Below are positions 27,931-63,094 of a DNA stretch of 64,000 nucleotides, in pieces. Within the stretch, counting starts at the first letter, position 1. Each line of letters opens with the position of its first letter. The position numbers and the translations under genes were made by a program. The notes beneath the pieces were generated by a model that saw only the letters and a list, made by a program, of their open reading frames with translations, made no database searches and was not told where the DNA came from. The DNA lies in NCBI RefSeq assembly GCF_028657945.1, contig NZ_CP059693.1, positions 5,208,001-5,272,000 on the forward strand, written 5' to 3'. Source of the DNA: Thalassomonas haliotis (GTDB lineage: Bacteria; Pseudomonadota; Gammaproteobacteria; Enterobacterales; Alteromonadaceae).

Positions 27931-28796
27931 TAGGGCGTGTTGATCTTTTGTGTTCATAACTTAATCAACCCGCATAGGTAACCACATCATAGCAAATGCC
28001 AGATTAACCATGCTGGCATAGTTTTGCTCTGACTTATCGTATCTTGTTGCTATTGCCCGAAAATATTTAATTCTGGCAAAAGCATTTTCAACCAAATGCC
28101 GATGCTTATAAAGACACCAACCCAGCATTGCCCGTTTTGCTATTTTTCCTACGCGGTATGACCGAGGTTGCACCGTTATTTTCGCTACCATAGCTAACAG
28201 CTTCGCTATCATAACCTTTATCTGCAGCCACATATTCAAATTGTGGTGAATGAGTTATCAATGAATTTGCATGGCTGGCATCATGAATTTGCCCACCGGA
28301 TAATTCAAAATATACGGGCAACCCATAGCTATCTACGGCGAAATGGATTCTAGTTGAATTCGCTCCCCGGCTTTCGCCGATCGCTCGGCTACCTTTTGAA
28401 GCTGAGCCGCTGCTATGTTGATGAGCACATACAATAGTTCCGTCCAGAAACAAGCATTCTACAGCGGAGATTTTAGATAAACACTTGAATAACAAGTCTA
28501 TAATCTTTTTCTTTGACCATAGGTTAAATCGACGAAATACCGTATTCCAGTAACCAAAGTCTGAGGGTAAATCACGCCAAGGCAAACCAGTTATCATCCG
28601 GTAAAGAATCCCTCAAACGTCATTATATGCTCGGGTTTGTTGTAAACTCTGCCGCTGTGCCGCATTCATTGGGACAGCTTCTGCCATACGGCATCTGTTA
28701 ACATAGTGCTTAGTATGATGGTTTGTTTTTGGCAAAATTAATTATAACGTTTCACCATGCTGTTCAAAATTCCTTCTTAAAAGATCAACCCCCTAG
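27931..28796 (-). mobile_element. Degenerate IS5-family insertion sequence
   Basis: Element of about 866 bp. The ends show an imperfect inverted repeat: CTAGGGCGTGTTGATCTTTT at 27931-27950 and, on the opposite strand, CTAGGGGGTTGATCTTTT at 28796-28779 (2 bp shorter). CTAG at both outer edges is consistent with an IS5/IS427-type target duplication. It carries one transposase gene with several inactivating changes. It abuts the remnant of a membrane-protein gene on its right side. Confidence 0.8.
27961..28704 (-). pseudogene. IS5-family transposase, disrupted
   Basis: DDE transposase read on the minus strand from ATG 28704. It starts MLTDAVWQKLSQ and then meets an in-frame TGA (28666-28668). 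A second lesion is a one-base loss in a G run at 28610-28612: restoring one G gives GILYRMITGLPWRDLP, the expected family sequence. The middle (28597 to about 28140) is open and contains FLDGTIVCAHQHSSG and ADKGYDSEA, with DDE Asp residues. A third break near 28121-28140 moves the C-terminal part (LYKHRHLVENAFARIKYFRAIATRYDK) to another frame. IS427-type elements can use one programmed frameshift, but three lesions point to a dead gene. Confidence 0.88.
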
Positions 28797-29026
28797 AGAA
28801 CTTTATCCGTTATTTGGATGCAATAGGCTTTAGCGAGGAAACCGCAGAAATCTTCTCCGGTTGGAACTGGATTTATTATCAATATGAGAATATTAAAAGC
28901 GTAATCAAGGGCTTATCTTTCTTCCTGCTCTGGTCAATGACCAGAGCAATCGGCAAAGAAAAGCACCAATCTCTAATGCCGGTTAAAAAGATAAACACGG
29001 CAAGTATCGATATTCTGTTCTTTTAG
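28793..29026 (+). pseudogene. 3' remnant of a membrane protein homologous to the 61.2-61.7 kb gene
   Basis: An open frame runs from the IS edge (CTA GAG AAC...) to TAA at 29026 and encodes LENFIRYLDAIGFSEETAE... with one membrane segment ending FFLLWSM. It aligns with the C-terminal part of the membrane protein at 61181-61711: ENFIRYLDAIG versus ENIIRHLDDFG, IYYQYENI versus IWQNYESI, LLWSM versus LIWSM. The 5' two-thirds is gone and the break is at the IS boundary. No SD precedes the TTG at 28814, so it is not expected to be translated on its own. Confidence 0.7.
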
Positions 29027-58247: not shown

Positions 58248-60452
58248 CTATTCGCTTAAGATTAATTCCGCCACTTCCTTTTTGCCGCTGATCATAACGG
58301 TCAATAAAATATCTGTCTGATTAATGTCTGTTAAATAATCATAGTCATCAAGTGTTTTCCCCAGGAGCTTAAAGGAATTTTCATGCAGATCATATGACCA
58401 CAATTGAAGTTCGTCACTGATCCCATAAATGACATTGTTTTTTACCAAAAATGGTTTATCACTTCCTTGATTGTCCAGTGCATCAATCAGTTGGTATTCG
58501 GCAGGGCCTGACTGCCAAAAACGATCCATATGATCGGTGTAAATGAATCGACCCTCTTCAGTTTTGAGCGCCCAGTTGACTTGGTTATTATGTATTACCC
58601 TAAGCTCTGAATTGTTCAGGTTGAATTCGACAAGCTTTATTATTCCCTTGATACGCACATTCATTAACGCGGTATTGGCTTCACTATCCCATTGAAACAG
58701 TTGCTCAACGGAGTGAACTAAAGGGATGGGCTTGACACTTGAATCCAAAAATACTTGAGTCAGTTTTTTATTGGCATTAACCAAAATGCTCGCGCCATCC
58801 ATGGCCCAGTTCATTCCAGCAATACGAGTATCTAACTGAAAATTTGTCAGTTGCTGTGGGTTGAGACCATCGGTTATCCATAGTTGCTCTTGTCCGGTAC
58901 GTCTGGACCTAAATGCCACTAAAGGACCATTTGGCTGAAAAATACCCTGTTGCTCTATTCGTATCGAACGTTGCAGTACCGAGTAATTGCTAATGGCTTC
59001 ATTTTGCCTTTGCCTATGCTCTGCTTGTGCATCGGCAAATTGTGACAAAGGCAATTTCACGATATCAGTATCGAAAATGGCCTTTGTCATCAACATACGA
59101 TTTCCATCAGGATGAAATAAGGGCGACCCCATTGGTTCATCTAAAGGCAGACTGATATTCGCGATATTACCTTCATAGGAAAGAGTAAAGAACTGCCGAC
59201 CCGTACTGAAAATAAGTTGGCCAGTTTGCGGCATAAAATTGGGATAGATATCCCTTAAGTTTGCAATTTCTTTCGGGTATTTAATTTGATAACTCGATAA
59301 CAGCTGGCCGTCGGGCTTGAGTATTTCAAGGTATTTTTGTCCGTCGCTATGGGTACTGGTTAATGCAATAAGATCTTCTTTGGATGAATAGTCGAAGTCG
59401 TTTATATTGCCCTCGTCCAGTTTATAGATGACAGAGCTTTGGCTGTCTTCAATCGAATAGCTGGTCAATTGTCTACGGCTTGAAAACTCCTGCAAGAAAG
59501 CAACATTGCTATTATTCAACCACTTAGGACTGATAATGGTTGAATTTTTACACTCCATCAGCACGCTCGGCGTTTGCGGCATTTCAAGCGCTTTATGAAA
59601 ATCCAGGTTCGATAGTTTATAACATTGCTTCTGGGTGATGGGTTTATTGCAGTCTTCCTTTTCGATAACGACCAGCTCTTTACCGTCTTTAGAAAAACTA
59701 TGTTCACCGAAAGAACCCAAATTTTTTGTCAGTTGAAATTCTTCCTGGGTGTTAACGTTTTTGGCCCAGAGGTTATTAACACACAAATCTTTGGGGAAGC
59801 GATTGAAAACAATGTATTGACCGTCGGGTGTATAATTGCCGTTGCTCTCTGAGTGGTCAGTGGTGGTCAGTGAACGCAATTCCGTGAAGGCTAATTTCAT
59901 GCCTTGAGCTGGTGTCAGGTAGTGAACCCCGATAAAACTCACCATTGCGATAATCCCCAGAATAACTATCCCAATAAGGGGAGAGTTCAGCGTTAAAACC
60001 GATCCGGAGGGCTTTGCTAAATCGGCTCTTTCAATTTGAGGCGGTATAACTGCATCTTCTTTCGGTGCTTCATCTTTAGCTGCAGTTACAGTTGCACTTG
60101 ATAAAGTATCTTGTGCAATTCGCGATTCGGTGTCAGTTAATTCCTGCCACCGAACTTCAACTTCCAGACTATAACCCTGTTTAGCATGGGTCTTAATATA
60201 GGAATGGCTGCCTTCACCGAGCGCTTTTCTTAATCGGGCGATGCATCTTTGCAGGGTATTAGGTGTGACGACACTGTCAGGCCACACTTCTGATAATAAC
60301 TCATCATGACTCACGACTTTATTGGCGTTTTTGGCCAGGTGAGTTAACACCGCTAAAGCTTTTGGTGGAATAGTTTGAGATTGCGTTTTCTGGGTTATTT
60401 GATTACGAGTTAAATCGATAAAAAAATCACCTACCCAATACTGTGCTGACAT
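58248..60452 (-). CDS. ToxR/CadC-like membrane regulator with TolB-type propeller
   Basis: One-component regulator of 734 residues. The N-terminal winged helix (OmpR/PhoB type, about 5-98; PPKALAVLTHLAKNANKVVSHDELL then CIARLRKALGE) is cytoplasmic. A single membrane helix is at 158-179 and the rest is a periplasmic WD40/TolB-like beta-propeller (repeats such as GNYTPDGQYIVFNRFP, LFHPDGNRMLMT). Such proteins sense an extracytoplasmic signal and control nearby genes. It is divergent from the small peptide gene at 60718, so that gene is a likely target. The signal is unknown. Confidence 0.85.
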   Translation of the reverse strand: MSAQYWVGDFFIDLTRNQITQKTQSQTIPPKALAVLTHLAKNANKVVSHDELLSEVWPDSVVTPNTLQRCIARLRKALGEGSHSYIKTHAKQGYSLEVEVRWQELTDTESRIAQDTLSSATVTAAKDEAPKEDAVIPPQIERADLAKPSGSVLTLNSPLIGIVILGIIAMVSFIGVHYLTPAQGMKLAFTELRSLTTTDHSESNGNYTPDGQYIVFNRFPKDLCVNNLWAKNVNTQEEFQLTKNLGSFGEHSFSKDGKELVVIEKEDCNKPITQKQCYKLSNLDFHKALEMPQTPSVLMECKNSTIISPKWLNNSNVAFLQEFSSRRQLTSYSIEDSQSSVIYKLDEGNINDFDYSSKEDLIALTSTHSDGQKYLEILKPDGQLLSSYQIKYPKEIANLRDIYPNFMPQTGQLIFSTGRQFFTLSYEGNIANISLPLDEPMGSPLFHPDGNRMLMTKAIFDTDIVKLPLSQFADAQAEHRQRQNEAISNYSVLQRSIRIEQQGIFQPNGPLVAFRSRRTGQEQLWITDGLNPQQLTNFQLDTRIAGMNWAMDGASILVNANKKLTQVFLDSSVKPIPLVHSVEQLFQWDSEANTALMNVRIKGIIKLVEFNLNNSELRVIHNNQVNWALKTEEGRFIYTDHMDRFWQSGPAEYQLIDALDNQGSDKPFLVKNNVIYGISDELQLWSYDLHENSFKLLGKTLDDYDYLTDINQTDILLTVMISGKKEVAELILSE

Positions 60453-61180: not shown

Positions 61181-61711
61181 TTAAGTAGCTTCCACACTTA
61201 AGTATTCATTCCGCGCTTCCGGTATTACTACCATTGACCATATCAGCATAAATAATGCCCCCGTGAGTACCCCTATGATTGATTCATAATTCTGCCATAT
61301 GAAGATCCAATCACTATATTGACTAGCTATTTCAGCAGGTACTCCGAAGTCATCAAGGTGCCTGATGATATTCTCTCCAAACGCTAAGGCATCGGTTATC
61401 ATAAACACCACAAGCAAGCTTGAAATTCCATACTCGGCGTTGGTAATGAAAATATGCTTATTCGGTTTATCCCTGGCAATCAACGAAAGCTTCACTACCG
61501 AGGCCCTGAACGTTACGAGCATAAACGCCAATAAATCCATGATAAAGTGTGTACCGAACATCATAGCATTTATTGCGGTTGAGCTTAGGGTATCACTTTG
61601 TTTCACCAATACGATTTCACATATTATAGCTGTGGCTACGTATGCAAAAAATAGAATGGCACAAAGCTGTCGTACATTAGCATTGGTGCGATTTAGATAC
61701 CCAATCGCCAC
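61181..61711 (-). CDS. Polytopic membrane protein next to the double-glycine peptide
   Basis: Not recognised. From GTG 61711 it is 176 residues with about four membrane helices (near 12-35, 40-65, 95-115 and 150-170). The open frame continues upstream without a stop into AYHNICLSLVAIGYLNR, another hydrophobic segment. A well-placed SD and ATG at 61808 in a neighbouring frame would join it if one G of the run at 61738-61741 were removed. So the ancestral gene probably ran 61808-61181 with six helices. It follows the peptide gene by 26 nt on the same strand. A truncated homologue lies at 28793-29026. Candidate immunity, receptor or export partner. Confidence 0.65.
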   Translation of the reverse strand: MAIGYLNRTNANVRQLCAILFFAYVATAIICEIVLVKQSDTLSSTAINAMMFGTHFIMDLLAFMLVTFRASVVKLSLIARDKPNKHIFITNAEYGISSLLVVFMITDALAFGENIIRHLDDFGVPAEIASQYSDWIFIWQNYESIIGVLTGALFMLIWSMVVIPEARNEYLSVEAT

Positions 61712-61808
61712 TAACGATAAGCAGATATTGTGATAGGCCCCAGGTTGGGATCGATAAGTAAGCCATCCCGGCGAATAAAAGGAGCAACTTTCCCATGTTC
61801 GTATTCAT
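61712..61808 (-). other. Frameshifted 5' extension of the membrane-protein gene
   Basis: ATG 61808 has AAAGGA 7 nt upstream and encodes MNTNMGKLLLLFAGMAYLS, a membrane helix, ending PTWG. In the frame as written it stops after 43 codons (stop about 61679). Shifting by one base at the G4 run (plus-strand CCCC, 61738-61741) continues PTW-AYHNICLSLVAIGYL into the main frame. Either a real frameshift mutation, a slippage-controlled switch or a sequencing error. Confidence 0.5.
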
Positions 61809-61834
61809 AAATAGTCCTTTATTATTGTTATTTC

Positions 61835-61975
61835 CTATAGACCGGGCTTTTCATCCTTAGCTTGGGTTGTTGGGGGAATAATAGTTGCTACTTTGGGATC
61901 TACGCCTTTGCTCCCGCCTAAGCCGCCAGAAATTTTCTTAAGGTCATTGATTGTTAGTTGTTTTCCAGTATTCAT
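61835..61975 (-). CDS. Double-glycine leader peptide (46 aa), bacteriocin/pheromone-like precursor
   Basis: 46 codons from ATG 61975 to TAG. AAGGAG lies 8 nt upstream, an excellent SD. The leader is LTINDLKKISGG at residues 7-18: Leu at -12, Thr at -11, Asp at -8, Leu at -7, Ile at -4, Gly-Gly at -2/-1. This matches the consensus cut by C39-peptidase ABC exporters (PCAT). The predicted mature peptide of 28 residues starts LGGSKGVDPK, is hydrophilic, Lys/Pro/Thr-rich and has no Cys. A promoter candidate lies 34 bp upstream and a polytopic membrane protein gene 26 nt downstream. No C39 exporter is in the window. May be a secreted signal or a bacteriocin. Confidence 0.75.
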   Translation of the reverse strand: MNTGKQLTINDLKKISGGLGGSKGVDPKVATIIPPTTQAKDEKPGL

Positions 61976-62008
61976 TTATATAGCTCCTTGCAGTTATATA
62001 CCCAGGCT

Positions 62009-62037: not shown

Positions 62038-62163
62038 CAAACTGTATGCGAGTAATAAAGATTTCTAACCTTGGGATGCTCACTTCCCTCCCCTTTATTA
62101 CTCTTCCTCAAATATGAAATAAACAGCACCTTTCAGATGTGCCCGTCATGCCTGACACATTAT

Positions 62164-62192
62164 AAAAAGTCCAGCAAAAAGCTGGACTTTTT
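62164..62192 (-). terminator. Intrinsic terminator after the secreted-protein gene
   Basis: Perfect stem AAAAAGTCCAGC / GCTGGACTTTTT with a 5-nt loop, about 80 bp after the minus-strand stop at 62270. It separates this gene from the peptide operon. Confidence 0.85.
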
Positions 62193-62269
62193 AGTAAGTT
62201 GACAATAAATACTTAAAACAGAGATTTGGTTAATAATACACTCTAATACAAGCCTGGCTGGCAGGTGCC

Positions 62270-63094
62270 TTAGTTCAAAATAACACTCCCATATATAAAA
62301 GCACTATCTTCTCCGCTATCGGTGTGGCCCCAGCTATAGTTGAACATGGCATCATTTCTTGCTGTTATTGAGGCAGTTTGGTGTACAGATGTTTTCCAAG
62401 AGTCGAGTCCCCAGTCAAAATTATAATAATCCCCGGTCATACGGTGATAGCTTTGGGTATTGGCAGCTAATGGATATGGCCCATAGTGAGCTGCATCTTC
62501 AATAAACCAATGAGTATCTAAGGGGGATGGATTTACGGCGTACCATGCAAGGCTATAGCTGGTCCAGCATACCGTGCCGTCACTAAATACATACCATTGT
62601 AATTGATTTGAAGTCTCTGTTAACGTTATCCTAGGTATATCATACGTTCTCACCCGAACCCTGCCTTGCCAGTACCCGGTATTAACACTTGGGAATATTC
62701 CCTCTTGCTCTCGGTTTGCCATAAGCTTCAAGGCTTTTGGCTCAAGGTTTATCCTATTGGTTACTTCCTGGTGAGTAAAAGTTTCTTCATCAAGCGTACT
62801 TGGATCAACTACAGTGGTGCTGTATGACTTATTTTTAATATCAACTTCATATTGCATAACCATTGTAGGCTTTCCAACTCCGTACTCCCCCTCGCCAGAC
62901 AAGGTAATGGACCCATCGGAATACACTTTCGCATGAAAATTAGGAATTGCCATAGACGAACTAGGGTTCATCTCTAGCTTAAACTCTTCAGCAAGTTGTT
63001 TGGTTTCTTTTGAAAGTACTGATACTGATGTTAGTAGTAATGCTAAAACGAAGAGAATGAGATATTTTGTATTATTAAAATTTAACCTTGGCAT
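62270..63094 (-). CDS. Exported protein of unknown function (274 aa)
   Basis: Not recognised. ATG 63094 has AAGGA upstream (6 nt). N-terminal signal helix about 10-28 (YLILFVLALLLTSVSVLS), then a soluble part of about 245 residues. An N-terminal half of beta strands (FHAKVYSDGSITLSGEGEYG) and a C-terminal half rich in Trp, Tyr and His (GTVCWTSYSLAWYAV, HYGPYPLAANTQSYHRMTGDYYN). One Cys in the mature chain. Probably secreted or periplasmic. Own terminator; upstream neighbour is the small membrane protein gene at 63146. Confidence 0.75.
   Translation of the reverse strand: MPRLNFNNTKYLILFVLALLLTSVSVLSKETKQLAEEFKLEMNPSSSMAIPNFHAKVYSDGSITLSGEGEYGVGKPTMVMQYEVDIKNKSYSTTVVDPSTLDEETFTHQEVTNRINLEPKALKLMANREQEGIFPSVNTGYWQGRVRVRTYDIPRITLTETSNQLQWYVFSDGTVCWTSYSLAWYAVNPSPLDTHWFIEDAAHYGPYPLAANTQSYHRMTGDYYNFDWGLDSWKTSVHQTASITARNDAMFNYSWGHTDSGEDSAFIYGSVILN

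What the first reader, a model, noticed from the sequence alone, without database searches (positions are those of the whole stretch)
61181..61975. Unlisted double-glycine peptide gene coupled to a polytopic membrane protein
A 46-codon gene (61975-61835, minus) has an ideal SD and a leader LTINDLKKISGG fitting every key position of the C39-protease (PCAT) consensus. The downstream membrane protein starts 26 nt later. The mature peptide (28 aa, hydrophilic, no Cys) is unlike classical pore-forming microcins, so a signalling peptide with its membrane receptor or immunity protein is a real possibility. The leader is seen in the sequence; the function is inferred.
Basis: partly seen in the sequence, partly recalled or inferred. 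Interest (0 to 1): 0.85.

Follow-up and report, generated by a model that had tools for sequence, protein, structure and literature searches.

The report
Repeated peptide signal with membrane receptor cassette
The short peptide gene is a real but damaged copy of an undescribed gene cassette in marine bacteria (a regulator, an exported peptide often encoded as repeats, and a membrane protein) that looks like a peptide-based cell-to-cell signalling system.

Summary
The peptide gene is real (61835-61975, minus); its leader passes NCBIfam's bacteriocin_sig cut-off. It is one of 8 cassette copies in this 6.45-Mb Thalassomonas-type chromosome. Intact relatives read HTH (XRE-type) regulator, GG-leader peptide, ~210-aa membrane protein (AlphaFold: six long helices; no Pfam, NCBIfam or PDB assignment). 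I scored 81 of 90 matched loci, in 24 genomes: HTH upstream in 73 (controls 9/81, 8/80, 0/80), strict GG leader upstream in 47 (controls 5/81, 2/80). In 12 of 81 the precursor has two or more leader sites; in six the unit is exactly 23 residues (12 leader + 11 core, S-G-G-x-x-G-x-x-P-K-x), up to five units. Leader and core change less than the tail. In five Pseudoalteromonas-group ORFs the HTH and membrane domain are one polypeptide. I infer a peptide - membrane receptor - regulator circuit, in logic like SdpC-SdpI-SdpR but built from other parts. Immunity is not excluded. The window copy is a poor example: no HTH, no shared upstream element, a long-branch membrane protein whose frame breaks after about 24 codons, yet intact leader and core: a signal-only or decaying copy, or partly an assembly error. 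Function is untested.

The parts
61835..61975 (-). GG-leader peptide precursor, 46 codons: leader 61922-61975, mature 28 aa 61838-61921 with core LGGSKGVDPKV
   Evidence: ORF; TIGR01847 17.4 over 15.7 bits; matches in all 4 genomes searched of the genus
61984..61988 (-). Shine-Dalgarno AGGAG, 8 nt before the start codon
   Evidence: sequence
61677..61808 (-). ATG-started 43-codon frame; its first ~24 codons resemble the membrane protein's N-terminus, then homology leaves this frame (near 61737)
   Evidence: compared with the family
61181..61711 (-). main ORF of the interrupted membrane protein, 176 aa from GTG (frame open from 61804)
   Evidence: 36% identity to L007's protein; family profile E 1.9e-87
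28793..28972 (+). relic of another copy of the membrane protein (model positions 143-202 only)
   Evidence: E 2.1e-17, open frame 81 aa

Best explanation
The locus is a degraded member of a multicopy three-gene cassette: cytoplasmic XRE-type HTH regulator, exported GG-leader peptide, polytopic inner-membrane protein. Proposed working of intact copies: (1) the precursor, with one to five leader+core units, is cut after GG by a C39 ABC exporter encoded elsewhere and released [inferred from leaders and exporters]; (2) the short core (S-G-G-x-x-G-x-x-P-K/R) is the active ligand [inferred from unit spacing and constraint]; (3) the membrane protein, N-terminus in the cytoplasm, senses the peptide on its outer face [inferred]; (4) it passes the signal to the HTH protein, which is encoded beside it and in some Pseudoalteromonas-group copies is part of the same polypeptide [gene order and fusion shown; signal transfer inferred]; (5) the HTH regulates its own operon [inferred from a shared upstream element]. 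The window copy keeps the ligand gene but has no regulator and an interrupted receptor gene, so it would act at most as an extra ligand source.
For: HTH upstream of the membrane gene in 73 of 81 scored loci (controls 9/81, 8/80, 0/80). Strict GG leader just upstream in 47 of 81, GG/GA/GS in 55 (GG controls 5/81, 2/80). Five single-ORF HTH-membrane fusions with a Pfam HTH over cut-off and the membrane profile at iE 1e-9 or better. Tandem leader+core units, exactly 23 residues apart in 6 precursors, up to 5 units. pN/pS leader 0.35, core 0.30, tail 0.58, membrane protein 0.19 over 40 non-independent pairs. Loop charges fit a cytoplasmic N-terminus. Orthologous cassettes kept across the four genus genomes (tree). 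TACGGA upstream of 16 of 32 Thalassomonas HTH genes.
Against: No experiment. L084, L085 and L088 have HTH and membrane gene without room for a peptide; L079, L081 and L082 have peptides without a GG leader, and L081's genome does have strong C39 genes. 26 of 81 loci show no G[GAS] leader by the pattern. No exporter is in the Thalassomonas cassettes read. SdpI shows that a receptor can also be an immunity protein. The HTH model was enriched from the same upstream regions, so 73 is generous. The window copy itself lacks HTH and the upstream element.
Confidence: 0.6

Rival explanations
1. Bacteriocin with immunity: the peptide is a narrow-range antibacterial agent, the membrane protein its immunity protein, the HTH a repressor of the pair.
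For: The leaders match bacteriocin_sig; GG leader plus a small membrane partner is the usual bacteriocin-immunity layout (recalled); SdpI is both immunity protein and receptor (PMC1626106, passages).
Against: The released core is short and hydrophilic (read by eye, not computed); cores are alike between parallel copies in one genome; HTH-membrane fusions are not expected of a pure immunity protein; tandem identical-type cores fit a ligand better.
Confidence: 0.25
2. The peptide stays in the cell and modulates the HTH or membrane protein directly; the GG motif is part of a conserved structure, not a PCAT leader.
For: Some cassettes have peptides without a GG leader (L079, L081, L082) or no peptide (L084, L085, L088); HTH and peptide reading frames overlap by 26 nt in L004 and L006.
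Against: Leader pattern far above controls; leader and core both constrained; the leader, not only the core, is repeated in tandem precursors.
Confidence: 0.1
3. About the window copy only, and compatible with the best explanation: it is a dead remnant with no function.
For: No HTH, no TACGGA, interrupted membrane frame, end branch 1.41 against a median of 0.14; other decayed copies exist (L048 TAG, L072 TGA, relic at 28793-28972).
Against: SD, leader and core are intact; of the 20 copies compared it has the widest gap between peptide (74%) and membrane-protein (45%) similarity, as if only the peptide were kept; the interruption could be an assembly error.
Confidence: 0.5

Closest known systems
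SdpC-SdpI-SdpR of Bacillus subtilis
   Same: Three-part logic: secreted peptide, polytopic membrane protein, small HTH autorepressor; SdpI senses SdpC and holds SdpR at the membrane (PMC1626106, passages)
   Different: Gram-negative; PCAT-type leaders instead of SdpA/SdpB processing; HTH is XRE-type, not the ArsR type of SdpR (recalled); membrane protein has no SdpI match in Pfam; precursors tandem; HTH and membrane domain sometimes fused
GG-leader pheromones of Gram-positives (ComC/CSP, BlpC)
   Same: Double-glycine leader; L004's precursor passes Pfam ComC (20.9 over 20.4)
   Different: L007 and L073 precursors do not pass it and the window peptide has no Pfam hit; no histidine kinase family among the Pfam matches of the membrane protein
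RRNPPA systems with repeated propeptides (AimR, NprR, PlcR, Rap)
   Same: HTH regulators (most members) with peptides; multiple pheromone copies in one propeptide (PMC9765709, passages)
   Different: There no repeats were found for Rgg and ComR; receptors are TPR proteins in the cytoplasm. Here each repeat carries its own leader and the partner is a membrane protein; no TPR match in the HTH proteins
Bacteriocin-immunity pairs with double-glycine leader
   Same: GG leader, small membrane partner
   Different: Regulator encoded with, and sometimes fused to, the membrane partner; short core repeated in the precursor; no exporter in the Thalassomonas cassettes read

Membership tests
PCAT (GG-leader) substrate peptides | GG motif preceded by hydrophobic residues at -4, -7 and -12 | tested here: met
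   Window leader LTINDLKKISGG; TIGR01847 over cut-off; -15 is Gly
PCAT (GG-leader) substrate peptides | C39-domain ABC exporter available in the genome | tested here: met
   Three in G000 over the Pfam cut-off; none in the window cassette itself
PCAT (GG-leader) substrate peptides | Cleavage after GG and export | not testable with these tools
   Needs biochemistry or mass spectrometry
SdpC-SdpI-SdpR | Membrane protein of the SdpI family | tested here: not met
   No SdpI match among families at E up to 1 in 38 members
SdpC-SdpI-SdpR | ArsR-type HTH repressor (recalled) | tested here: not met
   Three HTH proteins of G000 match HTH_3 over cut-off, no ArsR family listed
SdpC-SdpI-SdpR | Peptide-bound membrane protein sequesters the repressor | not testable with these tools
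   Fusions suggest coupling only
ComC/CSP pheromone systems | ComC family precursor | tested here: inconclusive
   L004 20.9 over 20.4; L007 18.6 and L073 18.1 below; window peptide none
ComC/CSP pheromone systems | Histidine kinase receptor | tested here: not met
   No kinase family in Pfam scan of 38 membrane proteins
RRNPPA | TPR-containing cytoplasmic peptide receptor | tested here: not met
   The three HTH proteins (112-146 aa) match HTH families and no TPR family
Bacteriocin-immunity pair | Antibacterial activity and protection by the partner | not testable with these tools
   Needs growth assays
Known anti-phage defence proteins | PADLOC model match of the membrane protein | tested here: not met
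   0 families at E 0.01 for 2 membrane proteins and 1 fusion; the one HTH tested matches RmrA models over its HTH region only

The most novel reading that the evidence does not exclude
A Gram-negative peptide pheromone system not seen before: polyprotein precursors in which every pheromone unit carries its own double-glycine leader, read by a new membrane receptor family that passes the signal to, or is fused with, an XRE-type transcription regulator, kept as up to about ten parallel channels per genome, with signal-only copies such as the one in the window.
Probability: 0.45. Interest if true: 0.9.

Novelty: new variant of a known kind. Interest (0 to 1): 0.78.

Why it matters
Peptide cell-to-cell signalling is best known from Gram-positive bacteria; secreted-peptide circuits of Gram-negatives with a named receptor are rare (recalled). 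If the reading holds, these marine bacteria run many parallel peptide channels through a one-step membrane receptor-regulator. The HTH-membrane fusions make the receptor question directly testable in a laboratory strain, and the leader-core repeats pose a clear question about how a PCAT handles a polyprotein. It also gives a function hypothesis to a membrane protein family without a Pfam assignment and to small genes that annotation can miss (in L110 the HTH and membrane genes are listed and the peptide gene is not, though that gene table is incomplete by design).

Tried and rejected
Phage or mobile origin: no match in phages for one membrane protein and none confirmed in viral contigs; plasmid hits were three Pseudoalteromonas replicons, two of them over 1.2 Mb. 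Known fold: Foldseek against PDB, best E 0.43; sequence profile against PDB chains, none at E 1. Single-sequence AlphaFold was useless (pLDDT 52); four sequences gave 79. RNA element: no Rfam match at gathering score in the window. Defence: no PADLOC match for the membrane protein. Wider distribution: order sample 3 of 394 and class sample 1 of 369 genomes (only 7-8 candidates scored per genome, so weak relatives may be missed). L008 peptides were set aside: other core, no such membrane protein. Exact-dyad operator search gave at most 4 of 32 loci; a 6-mer count gave TACGGA. Two of 11 extended sites lie inside an orthologous coding gene and are treated as chance. Promoter scan: as many sites as in shuffles.

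Rows left out: of 90 distinct matches were scored. Not scored: G044:C55, G069, G082:C1:2888167, G095:C1:4558034, G106:C59:46340, G146:C27:133186, G018:C12, G064:C14, G694:C44. Of these I read G018:C12 (HTH and GG peptide), G064:C14 (GG peptide, no HTH seen), G146:C27:133186 (fusion) and G694:C44 (cut by the contig end). The tree left out 8 far rows. Alignment A4 left out L054 and L063 (near-duplicates) and L012, L048, L050, L072 (broken or partial). In one search the L052-L072 membrane comparison covers only a few codons, because L072 has a stop.

Full report
What is in the window. Its leader passes NCBIfam's bacteriocin_sig model, 17.4 over 15.7 bits; Pfam gives it no hit. The membrane gene differs from the description. 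The ATG at 61808 follows the peptide by 26 nt, but after about 24 codons homology continues in another frame, whose long ORF runs from GTG 61711 to 61181. No HTH was found upstream; the next gene (62270-63094) has no Pfam family. Promoter-like sites are no more frequent than in shuffles.

The host. The window lies in G000, one 6.45-Mb contig. G061, of the same genus, has contigs of the same lengths as records titled Thalassomonas sp. RHCl1, so the genus is taken as Thalassomonas. G000 has three C39 ABC transporters. One is a stand-alone HlyD-C39 pair (L010); C39 proteins with the same 711-residue open frame occur in G013, G061 and G095 (their neighbours were not read). The other two sit beside other GG peptides (L009) or a radical-SAM-like gene (L011, judged by eye).

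A paralogous cassette. Searching G000 with the bacteriocin_sig model gave five places; three besides the window (L004, L006, L007) were HTH - GG peptide - membrane protein. A profile of the membrane proteins gave 9 places in G000 (8 substantial copies and one relic, itself in the window at 28793-28972), 8 in G013, 7 in G061, 11 in G095, and 14 of 196 genomes of the GTDB family. A broader profile gave 24 of 395 family genomes, 9 of 52 genera. Samples of the order and class gave 3 of 394 and 1 of 369, with few candidates scored per genome. In named records three Pseudoalteromonas replicons carry it, each read place with HTH, GG peptide and membrane gene; phages had none.

Census. I scored 81 of the 90 distinct matches. 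An HTH lies in the 1.1 kb upstream of 73; the same model hit 9 of 81 reverse strands, 8 of 80 downstream stretches and 0 of 80 downstream reverse strands. The model was enriched from the same upstream regions, so 73 is generous; tblastn with three HTH proteins had shown most of the first 44 loci to have one. A strict leader pattern occurs just upstream in 47 of 81, with GG/GA/GS in 55, against 5 of 81 and 2 of 80 for GG in the controls. Exceptions matter. L084, L085 and L088 have an HTH directly before the membrane gene and no room for a peptide. L079, L081 and L082 have peptides without a GG leader but ending in a similar core. The genomes of L079 and L082 (G101, G014) have only weak C39 hits and that of L085 (G044) none, while L081's genome (G082) has strong ones. 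So the link between leader and exporter is suggestive only, the more so as 144 of 196 family genomes have a C39 hit.

Core and tandem precursors. After GG the main Thalassomonas peptides share S-G-G-x-x-G-x-x-P-K-x. By the pattern, 12 of 81 precursors have two or more leader sites (one of them, L148, doubtful). In six (L049, L051, L054, L062, L064, L073) leader and core repeat at exactly 23 residues, with five units in L073; in L055 and L065 at 25; in the Pseudoalteromonas ones spacing varies (33-43). P. piscicida L111 has four units where its 78%-identical relative in NC201 (L136) has three. Between orthologues and close paralogues (40 non-independent pairs, no significance test) pN/pS is 0.35 for leader, 0.30 for core, 0.58 for tail and 0.19 for the membrane protein.

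The membrane protein. In 38 members the best Pfam match is DUF2569 at E 0.0012 in one member (cut-offs not shown there); the window, L004, L006, L007 and L111 proteins have no NCBIfam match over cut-off. There is no PDB sequence match and no convincing fold match (best E 0.43). AlphaFold with four sequences gave pLDDT 79, pTM 0.73 and six long helices. Loop charges favour a cytoplasmic N-terminus (mean net +3.68 for loop 4, -1.53 for loop 5). R103, E147 and R151 are invariant in 38 rows, and D93 too in 14 diverse rows.

Fusions. In genomes of the Pseudoalteromonas genus group (g18) five ORFs of 262-287 residues hold an HTH at the N-terminus and the membrane domain behind it (L139 twice, L154, L161, L163). 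Each has at least one Pfam HTH family over cut-off and the membrane profile at iE 1e-9 or better in a small test set. A sixth (L034) was only read. L144 is a short fused remnant. Fusion says that the two parts work together and agrees with the predicted topology.

Upstream element. TACGGA is the most frequent 6-mer in the 130 nt before Thalassomonas HTH genes (16 of 32), rare elsewhere (2 of 41), and absent from the 300 nt before the window's peptide. Its extended form GGCRATACGGAYAT occurs 11 times in the four genus genomes (control 0): by coordinates 9 lie before cassette HTH genes, including all 3 sites in G000, and 2 inside one orthologous coding gene. It may be an operator or an RNA leader; I did not separate these.

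The window copy. Its membrane protein has an end branch of 1.41 against a median of 0.14 and 45% best identity, while its leader+core is 74% identical to a unit of L073: the widest gap of 20 copies compared. With the missing HTH, the missing element and the broken frame this points to a copy whose receptor is decaying, or that came from an unsampled lineage, with the ligand kept. A sequencing error could explain the frame break but not the rest. Other decayed copies (L048 and L072 with stops, the relic at 28793) show that loss recurs.

Mechanism and rivals. The best reading is a peptide ligand, a membrane receptor and an HTH regulator. Shown: gene order, fusions, leaders, exporters in the genome, tandem units, constraint. 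Inferred: export, cleavage at each GG, binding, signal transfer and autoregulation. The nearest known logic is SdpC-SdpI-SdpR, where SdpI is at once immunity protein and receptor and holds the repressor SdpR at the membrane (PMC1626106, passages; PMC6818787, passages). That precedent also means immunity cannot be set aside. Repeated pheromone units are known in propeptides of AimR, NprR, PlcR and Rap systems, but were not found for Rgg and ComR (PMC9765709, passages); here each repeat carries its own PCAT leader.

In print. Searches (open-licence PMC full texts; listings and starts of abstracts seen) showed no description of this cassette; most papers of subscription journals are not held.

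Noticed in passing
window 28793-28972 (+): Relic of a second copy of the membrane protein (last third only), in the same window.
   Followed up: partly
L008 1420-1800 (-) and 1823-2983 (-): Two other GG-type peptides beside a large protein that looks like the C-terminal part of a lanthipeptide dehydratase (recalled resemblance); a different peptide family.
   Followed up: no
L009 10280-10604 (-): Two short GG-leader peptides of bacteriocin look near a C39 exporter and an HlyD-like gene.
   Followed up: no
L011 4281-10566 (-): A radical-SAM-like gene (by eye) beside a C39 exporter and HlyD-like gene: possible modified-peptide cluster.
   Followed up: no
L004 1-468 (+) and L007 2528-3037 (-): Homologous unknown genes lie tail-to-tail downstream of two of the cassettes in G000: a shared neighbour or a duplicated segment.
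   Followed up: no
window 62160-62195: Hairpin with A and T runs between the upstream gene and the peptide gene, terminator-like by eye; the scan listed none.
   Followed up: no
L078 2387-2970: Three separate small ORFs with similar GGYKGxGPRK-type motifs between one HTH and one membrane gene, instead of one tandem precursor.
   Followed up: no
window 58248-60452 (-): CadC/ToxR-like regulator (Trans_reg_C, 61.7 bits) with a beta-propeller-like C-terminal part, near but not part of the cassette.
   Followed up: no
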